From positions 310,001 to 374,000 of the forward strand of contig CAMJPB010000001.1 in NCBI GenBank assembly GCA_946407815.1: 64,000 bases of DNA, read 5' to 3'. Under the pieces are notes generated by a model. The model had not been told where the DNA came from and ran no database searches. It was given only the letters and a program-made list of their open reading frames with translations. The stretch comes from an uncultured Caryophanales bacterium (GTDB lineage: Bacteria; Bacillota_I; Bacilli_A; RFN20; CAG-826). The position numbers were made by a program, and so were the translations under genes. Of the stretch, positions 8,301 through 63,676 are shown piece by piece (the first letter of the stretch is position 1; every line of letters starts with the position of its first letter).

Positions 8301-9839
8301 TTAGAGCACCTTATTTGAAATAACTACGAATGTTGACGCAGGAATAGTTAATTCATTTATATTGTTAAATGAGCCTTCAATTTCGTAATTTGGCTTAATA
8401 AAGCCATCTTCACCGATTAAGGCTAATTTTTCGTTAAACATATAAACATAAAGTTTCTCGTTATTGTTATATTTTTCATCCATAACAAACTTCACGCTTG
8501 CGGCATTAATAACGTCTGTATTACAGAACATAATGCCTGCTAAATTTCTATCATTTGACAAAGTTGCAAGTGAACGAAGTGTTGGGTTTTTCTTACTTCC
8601 GTTATCGCCTGAATCAAATGTGATATTGTGTTTTCTAAGTAAATTCATCATTAGCATAGATGAATGATACCAAGGTCTAAGTGATTGTTCTAACGAATTT
8701 GCGCCACCTAATGTTGAAAACATTCCCCATTTTTTAGGTGTGGCGATATTTCCGTTATACATAAAGTACATTGCATCATCAAAATCCCAGTAAGCAATGC
8801 CATTAACGCCACTTGCTAAAGCAGTAAGTGTGTAATTTGCCATGGATTTTGCGTATGAATATGTATCAATTAATTCTTGGCAGTCTAAGGCAGCATTTTT
8901 ACCATCTTGTAAACCTGCTTCCCAGATATGTAAGCGACGTTTACTTCCGTATTCAGCATCTCTTTTTTTAATTTCAGCGTTTCTTTCGGCGTAAGTGTCG
9001 AGCATAACACCGTTATCAAGAGATTCTTTGTAAGGATAAATATGAACACCATAATCTCCAACGGCATTTCTTAAAGTTTCATCTTCAGCAATGCCATAAA
9101 GATATGATTCCATACTTCCATCGCTTGTTGCGGTAGCATCGCTACCGACAATCTTAATATAATTAAGTCCCATGCTATCGAGTTTAGCGCGTAAATTCAA
9201 AACACCTTGTCTCCACTTCTCAAAAGTATTGAAGTAGTTTTTAGATGAATTTGGTTTACCTCTATAGTTAGGTTCGTTTGAGTTAACAATGTACTTAATG
9301 CAGGTAAAACCTTTCTTAAGTACTAAGTAATCAAGAATGTCACCGTACATTGTTGTCCAACGTGGGTCTGATGTGACATCGTCCATCATTCCCCATTTGT
9401 CATCAACCATGCTGCCAATAACGTTCCAGGCACCAAAGGCGACTGTTAAATCGTGTTCTTGACAGTAGGTTAAAACTTGTTCAGTGGATTTCATCCACTT
9501 GTTAGTGAAATTGTATGTCCAAGTGTCATTAGTTTTATCTTGATCACCTTTATTATCAAAGTTCTCACAAAACCAGTCAAAGTTGATCATACATCTAATT
9601 AAAGACATACCATCCATTCTATCGGCGTACTTGGTAATTCTATCCCAAGCATTTGTTTGTAATTTGTTTAAATCTTCGTACGCACCCCATTCAACACCGA
9701 GTCCGTCAAAATCATCACTAATGAGATTTATTTGTGGTGAAAACACCATTAAACCTTTGTCTTTTTTAACGGAACCACCTGCACAGCCGGTTAATGATAA
9801 TGTGGTAAGTAAGAATAATTTCTTAATCCCTTTTATCAT
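8301..9839 (-). CDS. clan GH-A glycoside hydrolase lipoprotein (probable endo-acting)
   Basis: Surface lipoprotein (512 aa, lipobox LTGC with Cys at 19) with a TIM-barrel glycosidase. The acid/base is probably Glu189 in NSNEPNY at the end of strand 4, and the nucleophile probably Glu307 in HIWEAG at strand 7, the clan GH-A arrangement. A short beta-sandwich-like C-terminus (residues about 410-512) recalls GH30/GH39/GH5 relatives. Within a locus with two GH130 phosphorylases, an outer-surface endo-mannanase or beta-mannosidase-like role is the simplest reading; the GH family number is not certain. It sits 3 nt after the solute-binding protein gene, so binding, cutting and uptake are co-expressed. 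Confidence 0.78.
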   Translation of the reverse strand: MIKGIKKLFLLTTLSLTGCAGGSVKKDKGLMVFSPQINLISDDFDGLGVEWGAYEDLNKLQTNAWDRITKYADRMDGMSLIRCMINFDWFCENFDNKGDQDKTNDTWTYNFTNKWMKSTEQVLTYCQEHDLTVAFGAWNVIGSMVDDKWGMMDDVTSDPRWTTMYGDILDYLVLKKGFTCIKYIVNSNEPNYRGKPNSSKNYFNTFEKWRQGVLNLRAKLDSMGLNYIKIVGSDATATSDGSMESYLYGIAEDETLRNAVGDYGVHIYPYKESLDNGVMLDTYAERNAEIKKRDAEYGSKRRLHIWEAGLQDGKNAALDCQELIDTYSYAKSMANYTLTALASGVNGIAYWDFDDAMYFMYNGNIATPKKWGMFSTLGGANSLEQSLRPWYHSSMLMMNLLRKHNITFDSGDNGSKKNPTLRSLATLSNDRNLAGIMFCNTDVINAASVKFVMDEKYNNNEKLYVYMFNEKLALIGEDGFIKPNYEIEGSFNNINELTIPASTFVVISNKVL

Positions 9840-54508: not shown

Positions 54509-54584
54509 TGGTGGTCCAGGCCGGGGATGATCCGGCGACACGTGGATTTTCAGTCCACTGCTCTACCAGCTGAGCTACCGGACC
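54509..54584 (-). tRNA. tRNA-Phe (GAA)
   Basis: Cloverleaf on the minus strand: acceptor GGTCCGG with CTGGACC, anticodon arm GTGGA-CTGAAAA-TCCAC with anticodon GAA, T-arm loop TCGCCGGATCATCC region, discriminator A and encoded CCA. 76 nt including CCA. Confidence 0.95.
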
Positions 54585-54604: not shown

Positions 54605-54680
54605 TGGCGGATCATAGGGGAGTCGAACCCCTCTCGCCTCCGTGACAGGGAGGCATCATAAACCGATAGACCAATGATCC
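54605..54680 (-). tRNA. tRNA-Asp (GTC)
   Basis: Acceptor GGATCAT with ATGATCC, anticodon arm CCTCC-CTGTCAC-GGAGG with anticodon GTC, discriminator G as expected for Asp, CCA encoded. 76 nt; transcribed with tRNA-Phe 20 nt downstream. Confidence 0.95.
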
Positions 54681-59388: not shown

Positions 59389-60768
59389 CTAAGCCTTTGG
59401 ATTATCCACGTGACCCACAAAGATTGGGGTGTTATTTTTGTCTCTAATTATATAAATAAATGGCTGATTTAGATTAACATCTAAACTGTCAAAGAAACCT
59501 GGTGCTGCTTCACCTTTACTCATTGATGCCATTGAAATACTCTTGATGATTGTGCCATCTTCATTAAACTCAACTTCGTTCTTTTGTTTGATTTTATCAA
59601 GATATATTGTGTCATCAGGCGTTAAATTAGGATCATCAAAGGCATTTTTGAACGAATCAATTGCTTCATTAAAAATATCCGCAAATCCTAATTCGACTAA
59701 AGTTTCTTTTAGACTCATTTCAGATTTTAAATTAAACTTTGGAGTTTTCATGTTAATCGTGAAATATTCTTGACCATATTCAGTCTCATTAACGACTAAA
59801 TTATCGTTATTTTCTTCAAAAATATTCACGTCTTTTGTGAGCTCAAAAATGTTATCGTTTAAACTCTTTGGAACCATGTAAGTTGCTGATGCATTTTGAT
59901 TATAATAATAGTCTTTTACTGCAATGTAAGTTCCATAGTCATAATAACTATCACTCATATATGAGTGTCTCATGTAATCTACCTTGACAGAACCACCATC
60001 GTTTAGGTAGAAATCATCATTAATATTGTCACTTTCTAAATACTTATTTGCCCAAGCATTTTTGAAGTACAAAGTTGAGAATAAATAGAGCTGGGTGTCC
60101 TTAGTTAATTCAAGAAACTTCTTATCAATAAAGTTATCTTCATTGACCGCACTATTCGCCCATTGAACTATCTTTTCTGATTCACTTAAAAAGTTTAATT
60201 GATAAGATTCGCAGTAAAGACGAGTCAAATAATCAACATAAGCTTGATTGTACTGATATTCATTATTGAAGAAAGCACCATTTCTAACTTGAATCGTGGA
60301 ATCTTCACATGCAAAGGAGTTTGCAGCAAGAATTTTGCTAAAAAGCATAATTCTTTCGTTTTCAGTTAAACCAAGTAATTCGTCAAATCTTTGCGTTAAA
60401 TCTTCTCGACATGAAGCCTTATACATTTCGTTAATTAACGAATAAAGACCAAGATTACAGTAAGAAAGATTAGGTTCGCTGCGAGTTTTAACTACTGCAC
60501 GATAAGTTAAATTTGAAAAATTCGAATATGATTCGCTTTCAGCAGGTGTTATTTCGCTTGTTTTAGGAGCATTTCCACTAGGATAAGTAACTTCATTAAG
60601 TTTTCTAAAAGTGTTAGCTTCTGCTACACGAATTTCATTCATCGTGTAACTCCTTTTATAAACTTTGACGCTTTCTTTCTCTTCAAAAAGACCACAAGAA
60701 CATAAAGGAATTGCAGTAAAACCTAATAAAAGCAATGAAATTAGACTACTATTTTTGTTTTGTTTCAT
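59389..60768 (-). CDS. surface-anchored serpin
   Basis: 459-aa exported protein with a lipobox-like LCSC (Cys near 26). The serpin signature is clear at the C-terminus: LNQPFIYIIRDKNNTPIFVGHV. Inner blocks include ISLA-like AANSFACEDS and STLYFKNAWANKYL. The reactive-loop hinge reads NEDGTIIKSIS, where inhibitory serpins have small residues (Ala) after GT, so protease trapping is plausible but not assured. Could guard the cell against host or microbial proteases. Its stop overlaps the leader of the diguanylate cyclase gene. Confidence 0.88.
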   Translation of the reverse strand: MKQNKNSSLISLLLLGFTAIPLCSCGLFEEKESVKVYKRSYTMNEIRVAEANTFRKLNEVTYPSGNAPKTSEITPAESESYSNFSNLTYRAVVKTRSEPNLSYCNLGLYSLINEMYKASCREDLTQRFDELLGLTENERIMLFSKILAANSFACEDSTIQVRNGAFFNNEYQYNQAYVDYLTRLYCESYQLNFLSESEKIVQWANSAVNEDNFIDKKFLELTKDTQLYLFSTLYFKNAWANKYLESDNINDDFYLNDGGSVKVDYMRHSYMSDSYYDYGTYIAVKDYYYNQNASATYMVPKSLNDNIFELTKDVNIFEENNDNLVVNETEYGQEYFTINMKTPKFNLKSEMSLKETLVELGFADIFNEAIDSFKNAFDDPNLTPDDTIYLDKIKQKNEVEFNEDGTIIKSISMASMSKGEAAPGFFDSLDVNLNQPFIYIIRDKNNTPIFVGHVDNPKA

Positions 60769-61008: not shown

Positions 61009-61039
61009 AATTGTTATATAATAACAATTTTGCTATAAT
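61009..61039 (+). promoter_or_regulatory. promoter with palindrome over the -35 box, upstream of structured RNA
   Basis: Extended -10 TGCTATAAT (TATAAT 61034-61039), 17 bp, -35 TTGTTA (61011-61016). AATTGTTAT-ATA-ATAACAATT (61009-61029) is a perfect palindrome that includes the -35 box, a natural repressor site; RhuM-Fic carries a winged-HTH-like N-terminus that could bind it. Confidence 0.7.
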
Positions 61040-61045
61040 AAAGAT

Positions 61046-61361
61046 GTAAATATAATTAGACCACGGGCGGGCTGAGTATCCAGCGCAGGAAGATAATACT
61101 GAGGCCACTGATTATATGAACCGATATACTACGTGTTAGGGTATATTGATGAGGAAAGTATTGCCCAGTCGTGATACGGAAATATAAAGAAGGGGTCGCA
61201 CAGAGTAGACGCTTTATATGGAAGTAGTTCATCGCGCTCCTCACAATTAATCAATTAATTGAGCATGTGGCCGTCACAAGGATGACGTAACACCAATAGT
61301 TATGGACTAGGGATAGCCGGTAACTATGAAGGTGTTTTCATCATAGTGGCGGCTTTTATTT
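61046..61361 (+). ncRNA. unrecognised structured RNA upstream of RhuM-Fic and FtsH-like protease
   Basis: About 315 nt with no convincing ORF on either strand and far more GC-rich than its surroundings. Helices I can pair by eye: GCTG/CAGC (61071/61081), CGATATAC/GTATATTG (61122/61141), TGAGGA/TCCTCA (61150/61238), ATATAAAG/CTTTATAT (61182/61212), GGCCAC/GTGGCC (61103/61267), and a long 3' hairpin made of GCCGTCAC/GTGGCGGC (61270/61346), GATGA/TCATC, AACACC/GGTGTT, ATAGTTA/TAACTAT and a CTA/TAG tip. The hairpin is followed by TTTTATTT, so it can end the transcript. Not RNase P, tmRNA, 6S, or a riboswitch class I know. Confidence 0.75.
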
Positions 61362-61362
61362 A

Positions 61363-61403
61363 CCTCCTATCTTGAAAGCACCAAGTTTGTTCTAAGAAGG
61401 AGG
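61363..61403 (+). promoter_or_regulatory. helix able to hide the ribosome binding site of the Fic gene
   Basis: CCTCCT (61363-61368) is an exact complement of AGGAGG (61398-61403), the Shine-Dalgarno 8 nt before ATG 61412. A small CTTG/CAAG hairpin (61371/61382) lies in the loop. Translation of the Fic protein would be low unless this is opened. Confidence 0.6.
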
Positions 61404-61411
61404 ATTTTTAA

Positions 61412-62344
61412 ATGAACAACTTAAAATTGGTGAAATTCACCGACAAAGATTTTGAATTGGATGTGCGTGCCGATTCAGAAAAAGAAACCGTATGGTTAAC
61501 GCAAGAAGAAATAGCGCTCTTATTTAACACTGCCAGAAGCACTATTACTTATCATATTAATAGAATCTTTTCTTCAGAAGAGTTGGATAAAAACACTTCT
61601 GTCGAAAAATTCGACGGAAGGGTAAATTATCGACCAGCTAAATTATATAATTTAGATGTCATTTTAGCGGTTGGTTATAGAGTCCAATCCGATAGAGGAA
61701 TTCTATTTAGAAGATGGGCAAACAAGGTCTTAAAAGACTTTTTGATCCAAGGCTATGCCATTAACGAAAAACGTCTAGCGGCACTAAATAAGACAATAGA
61801 CATTCAAAATAGAATGCTTTCTTATGCCTTAGACATCGATAAGGAAGAACTTTTTAAAGTCATTAATGGCTACACGAAAGCTCTAAATTTATTAGATGAC
61901 TATGACCATCAAACGCTTGAAAAACCTAAAGGCACCACTAGCGATTACCTCTTAACTTACAAGGAAGCTAGAGAAATCATTAATTCAATGAAATTTAATG
62001 AAAAATCAGAAATCTTTGGGGTCGAGAAAGAAGAAGGGAAACTAAACGGAATAATCTCTCAAGTTTACCAAAACGTTTTTGGGAAAGAGCTTTACCCAAC
62101 TGTAGAAGAAAAGGCTGCATATTTACTTTACTTTTTAGTCAAAGATCATCCGTTTGTAGATGGATGTAAAAGAATAGCCGCTACACTATTTATTAACTTC
62201 TTATATCGAAACAATATTCTTTTTAAGAATAATAGGCAAATTATTTCAAATGAAGCGCTTGTTGCTTTAACTATTTTAACAGCAGAAAGTAATCCAGATG
62301 AAATGGAAATAATAACTAGACTCATCACAAATCTTTTAGTTTAA
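61412..62344 (+). CDS. RhuM-Fic family protein
   Basis: 310 aa. Residues about 25-130 are the RhuM module with a winged-HTH-like start (VWLTQEEIALLFNTARSTIT) and YNLDVILAVGYRVQSDRG. Residues about 180-310 are a Fic/Doc fold with active-site motif HPFVDGCKR at 246-254; canonical HPFxxGNKR has Asn where this has Cys. The catalytic His and the Gly/Lys/Arg are kept, so nucleotide or phosphate transfer to a target protein or to elongation factor Tu is possible. A C-terminal SNPDE element resembles the regulatory end of stand-alone Fic proteins. Perfect AAGGAGG site; 15 nt before the protease gene. Confidence 0.85.
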   Translation: MNNLKLVKFTDKDFELDVRADSEKETVWLTQEEIALLFNTARSTITYHINRIFSSEELDKNTSVEKFDGRVNYRPAKLYNLDVILAVGYRVQSDRGILFRRWANKVLKDFLIQGYAINEKRLAALNKTIDIQNRMLSYALDIDKEELFKVINGYTKALNLLDDYDHQTLEKPKGTTSDYLLTYKEAREIINSMKFNEKSEIFGVEKEEGKLNGIISQVYQNVFGKELYPTVEEKAAYLLYFLVKDHPFVDGCKRIAATLFINFLYRNNILFKNNRQIISNEALVALTILTAESNPDEMEIITRLITNLLV

Positions 62345-62359
62345 AAAGGAGGAGAAACA

Positions 62360-63676
62360 ATGGAACAAATTATTGGATACGAAATAGAAAGAAAAAGAAT
62401 TGAAGCAATCGCTGATGTATTTAAAAATTACGAAAAATATAAAGCACGTGGCATTGCTATACCAAAAGGGGTCCTATTAACTGGACCCTCCGGTGTAGGG
62501 AAAACAATGTTTGCAAAGCATCTTGCACGCTGTGCTGGTGCCAATTTGTTTACATTTTCTCCTATTGATGAAAATTACACTCATAGCGAAAATGCAACAA
62601 AACTAAAACAACTTTTTGAAAAAGCAAAGAAACAAACACCATCAATAATTTTTGTTGATGAACTAGATAGCTATTTCCCTAGTAACACATTTAGGAGTGA
62701 CAAAAATAGTGACTTTCTTGCCACCATCTTAATGGCACTAGATGGTGATGGCTATGAAGGCATTATGTTTGTTGGGGCTTGCATTGATATTTATGACATT
62801 CCTCATCAAGTCACAAGGTCTGGTCGAATTGATGAAAGCATCATTTTAGATATTCCCAATCTTAAAACTAGAGCAGATATGATTGCTTATTATTTATCAA
62901 AAATCGATATAAAAACTGATTTTGATAACATTAAGCTCGCAAATAAAATTCCTGATTTTGTTGGGGCTGATATTAAAAACTTGCTAAATATGGCTTCAAG
63001 ATTAGCTATTTCGAGTGAAAAAGATACTATCACATTAAGTGATTGTACAGACTGTATCTATTCAATTAGACACAAAGATATCAAACGAGAAAACCCAACT
63101 AACGAGATTCTTCAAGTCGCAGTTCATGAAGTAGGTCATTTAATTGTTGGAAAAATTCTAACCAAAAAATCATATGATGTAACAATTGACAATTACGACT
63201 ACATAAAAGGAATGGTTGTTGAGTTAGACGAAGAAAATGATGATGACTTCGAGGAAGAGAATAACGATTCACCCAAACCACTATTTGTTACTGATAAAAA
63301 TTATTTTTTAGACCAAATCACCATAGTTCTTGCAGGAAAAGCGGCAGAGAAATTAATACTTAAGAGCGAAACAAATAGCTGCACGCACGATATCGAAAAA
63401 GCAACACATATAATTAGAAGAATGTGCAAATCAGGATTACTTGGGTTTAAATACGTAGATCCATACAATATTTCTTATTATGATGAATGGAGCAACAACC
63501 GAAGGAAAATGTTTGAAAGGAAAACATACAGAATTCTCTCATCGTGTTTCAGTAAATCCTTAAGAATTTTAAGAAAAAATAAGACAATGCTGAGTGACTT
63601 TACTGAATTTTTAATGGAAAAAACAGTACTTTCTGCGGACGAAAGCAATGTTTTATTTGAAAAATATAACTATTAA
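62360..63676 (+). CDS. soluble FtsH-like AAA+ ATPase with M41 zinc peptidase domain
   Basis: 438 aa with no membrane helix, unlike FtsH, which has one or two at its N-terminus. AAA+ module: Walker A GPSGVGKT at 42-49, Walker B IIFVDE at 96-101, arginine-finger region TRSGRIDESI near 152. Peptidase: zinc motif HEVGH at 256-260 and the third ligand Asp344 in THDIEKAT, both as in FtsH. An acidic stretch (about 288-304) is inserted in the peptidase. It should be an active ATP-driven protease that could degrade Fic or its target. Coupled to the Fic gene with GGAGG upstream. Confidence 0.85.
   Translation: MEQIIGYEIERKRIEAIADVFKNYEKYKARGIAIPKGVLLTGPSGVGKTMFAKHLARCAGANLFTFSPIDENYTHSENATKLKQLFEKAKKQTPSIIFVDELDSYFPSNTFRSDKNSDFLATILMALDGDGYEGIMFVGACIDIYDIPHQVTRSGRIDESIILDIPNLKTRADMIAYYLSKIDIKTDFDNIKLANKIPDFVGADIKNLLNMASRLAISSEKDTITLSDCTDCIYSIRHKDIKRENPTNEILQVAVHEVGHLIVGKILTKKSYDVTIDNYDYIKGMVVELDEENDDDFEEENNDSPKPLFVTDKNYFLDQITIVLAGKAAEKLILKSETNSCTHDIEKATHIIRRMCKSGLLGFKYVDPYNISYYDEWSNNRRKMFERKTYRILSSCFSKSLRILRKNKTMLSDFTEFLMEKTVLSADESNVLFEKYNY

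What the first reader, a model, noticed from the sequence alone, without database searches (positions are those of the whole stretch)
61046..61361. Candidate new structured RNA class
At least eight helices, several 6-8 bp with G-U tolerance, close in a nested order, ending in a long interrupted hairpin and TTTTATTT. The sequence does not match any RNA family I can recall, despite chance likenesses (GAGGAAAGT as in RNase P, TGATGAG...GAAA as in hammerhead).
Basis: partly seen in the sequence, partly recalled or inferred. Interest (0 to 1): 0.85.

Follow-up and report, generated by a model that had tools for sequence, protein, structure and literature searches.

The report
RNA switch before toxin/defence genes
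A 315-base folded RNA, of which only the last third was previously catalogued (Rfam 'COG3943 RNA', function unknown), sits directly in front of toxin-like and phage-defence-like genes in uncultured gut Bacilli and looks like a built-in off/on switch for them.

Summary
The RNA is real. It is not an entirely new class: 61233-61335 matches Rfam RF02941 'COG3943 RNA' (85.7 bits), which covers only the 3' third. In 86 homologous loci the conserved RNA runs from its own promoter (+1 about 61046) to a U-run (61361). The 5' part is tied to the Rfam part by a strongly covarying long-range helix (61150-61154:61239-61243) and holds a covarying hairpin (61122-61129:61141-61148). The 3' end contains mutually exclusive helices. 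One strand (61269-61277) pairs either locally (61283-61287) or with 61346-61354 before the U-run as a terminator, and all three strands change together. A second competition links the terminator stem to a hairpin that hides the ribosome-binding site. The downstream gene varies: YhcG nuclease (44), a MazF-fold protein (21), RhuM-Fic (14, including the window), BrnTA-like (4). Leaders up to 98.7% identical carry unrelated genes. Best explanation: a cargo-independent cis-acting leader that keeps toxin/defence genes off by termination and ribosome-binding-site masking until an unknown signal appears. Main rival: a type III-like RNA antitoxin. The trigger, and function in cells, are untested.

The parts
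61011..61039 (+). promoter: TTGTTA -17- TATAAT with TG before the -10 (extended -10)
   Evidence: 10 of 12 consensus matches; in 49 of 73 homologues with an AGAC anchor a TATAAT-like box lies exactly 24 nt before it
61046..61361 (+). full structured leader RNA, predicted +1 to U-run
   Evidence: conservation limits, covariation
61049..61118 (+). P1 (61049-61056:61111-61118) enclosing peripheral module M1; the window has the module type GGCGGGCUGAGUAUCCAGCG
   Evidence: P1 paired 0.83 against 0.63 in shuffles, up to 14 double changes per pair; module types
61122..61148 (+). P2 hairpin (61122-61129:61141-61148) with invariant loop motif GUGUUAG 61133-61139
   Evidence: 99.1% paired, 5-11 double changes per pair; E down to 1.7e-7; GUGUUAG exact in 77 of 86
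61150..61243 (+). P3 long-range helix UGAGG 61150-61154 : CCUCA 61239-61243, joining the 5' half to the Rfam part
   Evidence: 99.8% paired; 12 double changes at 61152:61241; E 8.9e-7 and 0.012
61153..61167 (+). conserved core GGAAAGUAUUGCCCA; 61162 covaries with 61131
   Evidence: exact GGAAAGYAUYGCCCA in 65 of 86, within 2 edits in 84 of 86, against 3 of 1720 shuffled upstreams; 61131:61162 E 0.0011
61182..61219 (+). P4, the main stem of peripheral module M2
   Evidence: paired 0.77 against 0.56 shuffled, up to 15 double changes; exchangeable module types
61233..61335 (+). Rfam RF02941 COG3943 RNA match
   Evidence: 85.7 bits, gathering score 71.8
61269..61287 (+). P6: strand A (within 61269-61277, GGCCGUCAC) pairs with strand B 61283-61287 (UGACG)
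   Evidence: 97.2% paired, double changes 8 and 4; E 0.0022 for 61276:61283
61269..61361 (+). terminator helix T: strand A 61269-61277 with strand C 61346-61354 (GUGGCGGCU), then UUUAUUU
   Evidence: 96.5% paired against 86.9% shuffled, double changes 6, 4 and 4; in the MFE fold of 85 of 86 sequences
61289..61336 (+). P7: outer AACACC 61289-61294 : GGUGUU 61331-61336, inner stem 61296-61302:61321-61327
   Evidence: inner pairs 0.89-0.99 paired with 2-8 double changes; outer pairs almost invariant
61331..61382 (+). alternative helix GGUGUUUUC 61331-61339 : GAAAGCACC 61374-61382, exclusive with the outer P7 helix
   Evidence: 93.9% paired against 91.1% shuffled, 8 double changes at pair 9; found by RNAalifold
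61363..61403 (+). ribosome-binding-site hairpin CCUCCU 61363-61368 : AAGGAGG 61397-61403
   Evidence: forms upstream pairing in 64 sequences against 31 when the 5' part is shuffled; near-invariant, so no covariation of its own
61412..62344 (+). regulated gene: RhuM (PF13310) + Fic (PF02661), COG3943; PADLOC PDC-S23
62360..63676 (+). next gene in the likely operon: AAA+ ATPase with M41 peptidase domain (FtsH-like)

Best explanation
It is a cis-acting 5' leader RNA about 315 nt long, of which RF02941 is the 3' part, that controls the gene behind it. Transcription starts at about 61046. The RNA folds into P1/M1, hairpin P2, a conserved core closed by long-range helix P3 around module M2, then P5-P7. 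As transcription proceeds, strand A first pairs with B (P6). Once C is made, A:C plus AACACC:GGUGUU form a terminator followed by a U-run, so by default most transcripts should stop at about 61361. Read-through transcripts can hide the ribosome-binding site in a CCUCC:GGAGG hairpin. In the alternative state A stays with B and GGUGUUUUC pairs with GAAAGCACC. That breaks the terminator stem and removes a strand from the ribosome-binding-site hairpin, so the gene is expressed. Shown by sequence: promoter match, helices, three-strand covariation, invariant core, gene position. Inferred: default-off behaviour, the direction of each state, that an unknown signal (ligand, protein, or altered transcription or translation during stress or infection) acts on the core, and that the purpose is tight control of toxic or defence effectors.
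For: Position: in 85 of 86 loci one of six gene families lies at a fixed distance behind the RNA. The window gene is RhuM-Fic. Whole-RNA covariation, including the 5' half. Switch: A, B and C carry A-U-U in 72 and G-C-C in 10 of 86 sequences at the key position, so both exclusive helices are maintained. MFE folds form P6 before C is made in 82 of 86, and T with no P6 afterwards in 85 of 86. Alternative helix with 8 double changes. Ribosome-binding-site masking above control. Cargo-independence: RNAs 94-99% identical precede unrelated genes, and cargo type on the RNA tree is close to random (28 changes, shuffled 34.3 +- 1.9). This argues for a shared signal and regulation in cis rather than RNA-protein pairing. 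The cargo is toxin/defence-like: YhcG = PDC-S02, RhuM = PDC-S23/S05, a MazF-fold protein, and a CopG/BrnA antitoxin.
Against: No RNA, expression or ligand data. The terminator pairs did not reach significance one by one in the all-pairs test; their support is counts and three-strand agreement. The alternative helix is in the MFE of only 45 sequences. The standard terminator scanner does not see T because its loop is long. The covariation test is my own re-implementation of the R-scape idea on an anchor-guided alignment. The four BrnTA cases have a promoter-like stretch between leader and toxin (read by eye).
Confidence: 0.6

Rival explanations
1. Type III-like RNA antitoxin: the terminated leader binds and neutralises the toxin encoded behind it, with the terminator setting RNA excess, as for RCd22/AbiF in C. 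difficile and ToxIN/CptIN.
For: Same order promoter-RNA-terminator-toxin gene. A cargo family of 21 loci has a MazF/CcdB fold that also matches CptN (Z 7.6) and ToxN (Z 5.5). The RCd22 precedent carries another Rfam motif (RF03085) and acts in cis and in trans (PMC12373285).
Against: No tandem repeats in the RNA. One RNA type precedes proteins of unrelated families (YhcG, RhuM-Fic, MazF-fold). RNAs 98.7% identical have different cargo. Exchangeable modules do not track the gene.
Confidence: 0.17
2. Independent trans-acting structured RNA with its own promoter and terminator; the genes behind it are neighbours only (Rfam labels RF02941 a gene/sRNA).
For: Own promoter and terminator helix; a large invariant core; very long for a simple attenuator.
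Against: Fixed spacing to a restricted set of gene families in 85 of 86 loci. The switch helices extend past the U-run into the ribosome-binding site of the gene. Several copies per genome, each with a gene.
Confidence: 0.13
3. The leader is chiefly a recombination or mobility unit (a shared front end into which cargo is exchanged, perhaps moving as RNA), with regulation secondary.
For: L129 and L127 share 98.7% of the RNA, but neither the upstream sequence nor the gene; the shared block starts near the +1 and ends in the ribosome-binding-site hairpin. Modules are mosaic.
Against: Other near-identical pairs also share upstream sequence, as ordinary homologous recombination would give. No integrase, reverse transcriptase or repeat was found tied to it. 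Covarying exclusive helices need a regulatory reason.
Confidence: 0.08

Closest known systems
Rfam RF02941, COG3943 RNA
   Same: 61233-61335 is a full-length match over the curated score; it lies upstream of a COG3943 gene, the association that (from memory) gave the family its name
   Different: The Rfam model covers 108 positions; the conserved RNA is about 315 nt with a 5' half tied in by P3. The Rfam consensus line shows neither the terminator pairing nor P3. Only 14 of 86 leaders precede RhuM.
RCd22 / AbiF of C. difficile (RF03085 motif), type III-like TA (PMC12373285)
   Same: SigA promoter, structured RNA, terminator, toxic defence gene; most transcription stops before the gene
   Different: RCd22 is about 100-132 nt with two repeated motifs and binds one protein family; here there are no repeats, a much larger core, and several unrelated cargo families
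Riboswitches and attenuators with dual terminator / ribosome-binding-site platforms
   Same: Conserved core followed by mutually exclusive helices, terminator and masked ribosome-binding site
   Different: Ligand unknown; exchangeable peripheral modules; cargo is toxin/defence-like rather than metabolic
ToxIN / CptIN type III toxin-antitoxin systems
   Same: RNA upstream of a toxin of MazF-like fold, in some of the loci
   Different: No repeat array; the window cargo is RhuM-Fic

Membership tests
RF02941 COG3943 RNA | covariance-model score at or over the gathering score | tested here: met
   85.7 against 71.8 bits, model positions 1-108
RF02941 COG3943 RNA | the model spans the whole conserved RNA | tested here: not met
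   conservation and covariation extend about 185 nt upstream and through the U-run downstream
Riboswitch / cis attenuator | in the 5' leader of the regulated gene, same transcript | tested here: met
   promoter before the RNA; gene start 51 nt after the U-run; same in homologues; co-transcription itself not measured
Riboswitch / cis attenuator | expression platform with mutually exclusive helices | tested here: met
   A:B against A:C covariation, and outer P7 against alternative helix; comparative evidence only
Riboswitch / cis attenuator | binds a specific ligand that flips the switch | not testable with these tools
   needs in-line probing or reporter assays
Type III toxin-antitoxin RNA | tandem repeats in the antitoxin RNA | tested here: not met
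Type III toxin-antitoxin RNA | promoter - RNA - terminator - toxin gene order | tested here: met
Type III toxin-antitoxin RNA | toxin of the ToxN/CptN/TenpN group | tested here: inconclusive
   window gene is RhuM-Fic; 21 other loci carry a protein whose model resembles MazF, CcdB, CptN and ToxN at middling Z
Type III toxin-antitoxin RNA | RNA binds and neutralises the toxin | not testable with these tools
   needs co-purification and rescue assays
RNase P, hammerhead, T-box and other Rfam classes | covariance-model match | tested here: not met
   none at gathering or at E up to 10

The most novel reading that the evidence does not exclude
An unrecognised riboswitch-like class whose single conserved sensor core controls a regulon of unrelated toxin and anti-phage genes, i.e. 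an RNA that itself senses infection or stress and licenses defence, with swappable modules and swappable cargo.
Probability: 0.3. Interest if true: 0.87.

Novelty: new variant of a known kind. Interest (0 to 1): 0.63.

Why it matters
RF02941 is a named orphan with no function. Here its full extent, a covariation-backed architecture, a concrete switch and its gene set are given, each directly testable. If right, one RNA controls several families of toxin/defence genes, a route to default-off, signal-on immunity of which I know no example outside single RNA-toxin pairs.

Tried and rejected
(1) Wholly new class: rejected by the RF02941 match. (2) RNase P or hammerhead likeness: no model match. 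(3) Type III repeat array: no repeats. (4) Leader peptide: no short ORF is conserved across module types on reading the alignment (inspection, not a formal test). (5) Wide distribution: RF02941 hits are confined to one order in the genomes searched (66 of 279 genomes of the order; 8 of 392 in a phylum draw, all same family; 5' core pattern 5 of 395 in a class draw, same family). About 22 other hits (Planctomycetes, Chromohalobacter etc.) lack the rest of the RNA and were set aside as chance. (6) Phage and plasmid collections: no match; one IMG/VR contig, L069. (7) MAFFT Q-INS-i was unavailable, so segment-wise alignment between conserved motifs was used. (8) The 2017 paper that (from memory) described the motif is not held; literature searches found no discussion of this RNA. 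(9) The standard terminator scan misses T because of its long loop.

Full report
OBSERVATION. The region 61046-61361 was checked for structure, conservation and known families. The single-sequence fold is better than most shuffles but not extreme (-89.1 kcal/mol, z -2.5, 2 of 100 shuffles as good). Rfam 15 gives one match above threshold in the neighbourhood: RF02941, COG3943 RNA, 61233-61335, 85.7 bits against a gathering score of 71.8. No other family fits the stretch even at E up to 10.

HOMOLOGUES. RF02941 was found in 66 of 279 genomes of the window's order. It was in 8 of 392 genomes of an even draw from the phylum, all in the window's family. A motif scan of bacterial genomes gave 66 stretches; about 22 of them (Planctomycetes, Chromohalobacter and others) lack the rest of the RNA and were set aside as chance. 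The named records of the true homologues are metagenome bins labelled Bacilli, Bacillales, Erysipelotrichaceae and the like, many from ruminant gut. After removing duplicates 86 loci remained. The genome that holds the window has one copy.

EXTENT. Blastn of the window against these loci aligns about 61025-61410 in many of them. The motif GGAAAGYAUYGCCCA is exact in 65 of 86 loci and present within two edits in 84 of 86, against 3 of 1720 shuffled upstreams; GUGUUAG is exact in 77 of 86. A promoter (TTGTTA-17-TATAAT with extended -10) ends at 61039, which puts +1 at about 61046.

ARCHITECTURE. The alignment was built segment by segment between conserved motifs. Covariation was tested with a script in the manner of R-scape: G-test with APC, and a null made by re-dealing substitutions along the tree. 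Over all pairs of 433 columns the top pairs are in hairpin P2 (E 1.7e-7, 2.5e-5, 3.1e-5) and in long-range helix P3 (61152:61241, E 8.9e-7; 61151:61242, E 0.012). P3 joins the 5' half to the Rfam half. A core pair 61131:61162 (E 0.0011) and a P6 pair (61276:61283, E 0.0022) also stand out. Per-helix counts: P2 99.1% paired against 67% in shuffles; P3 99.8% against 85%; P1 83% against 63%; P4 77% against 56%; P7 inner stem covarying. Two peripheral domains, M1 inside P1 and M2 between the P3 strands, occur as several distinct modules that are combined freely. The RNA is thus a constant core with exchangeable outer parts.

SWITCH. Strand A (GGCC[A/G]UCNN, 61269-61277) pairs locally with B (61283-61287; P6) and, alternatively, with C (61346-61354), directly before UUUAUUU. 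A:C is 96.5% paired against 86.9% when strands are shuffled between loci, with 6, 4 and 4 double-change events; A:B is 97.2% paired with 8 and 4. At the key position the triplet A,B,C reads A,U,U in 72 and G,C,C in 10 of 86 sequences, with three G,C,U and one A,C,U. C would not follow A if only P6 mattered, and B would not follow A if only the terminator mattered, so both exclusive helices appear to be under selection. In silico the stretch before C folds P6 in 82 of 86; with C added, 85 of 86 fold the terminator and none keeps P6. The individual terminator pairs are not significant in the all-pairs test, which is a limit of this evidence.

SECOND LOCK. GGUGUUUUC (61331-61339) pairs with AACACC (61289-61294) in the terminator form, or with GAAAGCACC (61374-61382) beyond the U-run: 93.9% paired against 91.1% shuffled, 8 double changes at its last pair. 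RNAalifold finds this hairpin on its own, though it is the MFE in only 45 sequences. A CCUCC:GGAGG hairpin can mask the ribosome-binding site (64 sequences against 31 in a shuffled control). It shares the 61374-61382 strand region with the alternative helix, so the two compete.

CARGO. By tblastn of representatives the gene behind the leader is YhcG (44; in 10 of them a DUF4314 ORF comes first), a family named here HFR-HP (21), RhuM (14, including the window), a CopG/BrnA antitoxin operon (4), KilA-N (1) and a metallophosphatase (1); one viral contig shows none. Pfam: YhcG_C + DUF1016_N, DUF4314, KilA-N, CopG_antitoxin; window gene Virulence_RhuM + Fic. PADLOC: YhcG as PDC-S02, RhuM as PDC-S23/S05, both candidate phage-defence genes. 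HFR-HP has no Pfam, NCBIfam or PADLOC match. Its AlphaFold model (pLDDT 89) resembles MazF toxins (VIA Z 8.9, about 3.2 A over 95 residues), CcdB (8.4), CptN (7.6) and ToxN (5.5); Foldseek E-values are weak (0.13 at best), so this is a fold-level lead. In the four CopG/BrnA cases the ORF before the antitoxin reads like a BrnT toxin, by eye.

CARGO INDEPENDENCE. Leaders L129 and L127 are 98.7% identical but carry HFR-HP and DUF4314+YhcG; L109/L114 (97.8%) carry YhcG and RhuM, and L003/L007 (97.2%) carry RhuM and YhcG. Cargo type changes 28 times on the RNA tree, against 34.3 +- 1.9 when shuffled. In L129/L127 the sequence upstream of the start also differs, so the shared block is the RNA itself. 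Many YhcG genes of the family lie without this RNA, so the gene does not require it.

INTERPRETATION. The best-supported reading is a cis-acting leader that holds toxin/defence genes off by early termination, and by ribosome-binding-site masking in read-through transcripts, until an unseen signal stabilises the alternative fold. Shown: promoter match, helices, exclusive pairings, position, cargo. Inferred: default-off, direction of switching, signal, purpose. The closest experimentally studied analogue by layout is RCd22/AbiF of C. difficile, where most transcription stops before the toxin gene and the RNA also neutralises the protein (PMC12373285). That makes the antitoxin rival serious, but one RNA serving unrelated proteins and the lack of repeats speak against it.

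NOVELTY. As a sequence family the RNA is known in part (RF02941). What is not in the Rfam model, and was not found in the papers searched, is the full length, P3, the terminator/masking switch, the exchangeable modules and the multi-family cargo.

Noticed in passing
window 61412-62344 and 12 related loci: The Fic motif of the RhuM-Fic proteins reads HPFxDGCKR: the usual Asn of HxFx(D/E)GN(K/G)R is Cys in all 13 copies read.
   Followed up: no
window 62360-63676: Soluble-looking AAA+ / M41 (FtsH-like) protein with HEVGH, directly behind RhuM-Fic; partial PADLOC IetA hits to its AAA part.
   Followed up: no
L124:8882-9232, L137:2241-2567, L019:1063-1386 (reverse) and others: Uncharacterised ~110-residue 'HFR..HP' family behind 21 leaders, no Pfam/NCBIfam/PADLOC match, predicted MazF/CcdB-like fold.
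   Followed up: partly
L129 (copy near 8859) against L127 (copy near 1955): Leader RNAs 98.7% identical between unrelated upstream sequence and unrelated genes; the shared block begins near the transcription start and ends in the ribosome-binding-site hairpin.
   Followed up: partly
L069, 9850-10242: IMG/VR contig with a copy of the leader followed by a T-rich hairpin and no visible gene in the bases held.
   Followed up: no
L010, L019, L126, L139 and others, directly after the leader: A small DUF4314 ORF often comes first and is followed by YhcG, RhuM or HFR-HP.
   Followed up: no
L026, L065, L076, L082 downstream of the leader: BrnT/BrnA-like toxin-antitoxin pair with its own promoter-like stretch between leader and toxin.
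   Followed up: partly
window 59389-60768 (-): Bacterial serpin with a lipoprotein-like signal sequence.
   Followed up: no
window 54512-54584 and 54608-54680 (-): Two adjacent tRNA genes.
   Followed up: no
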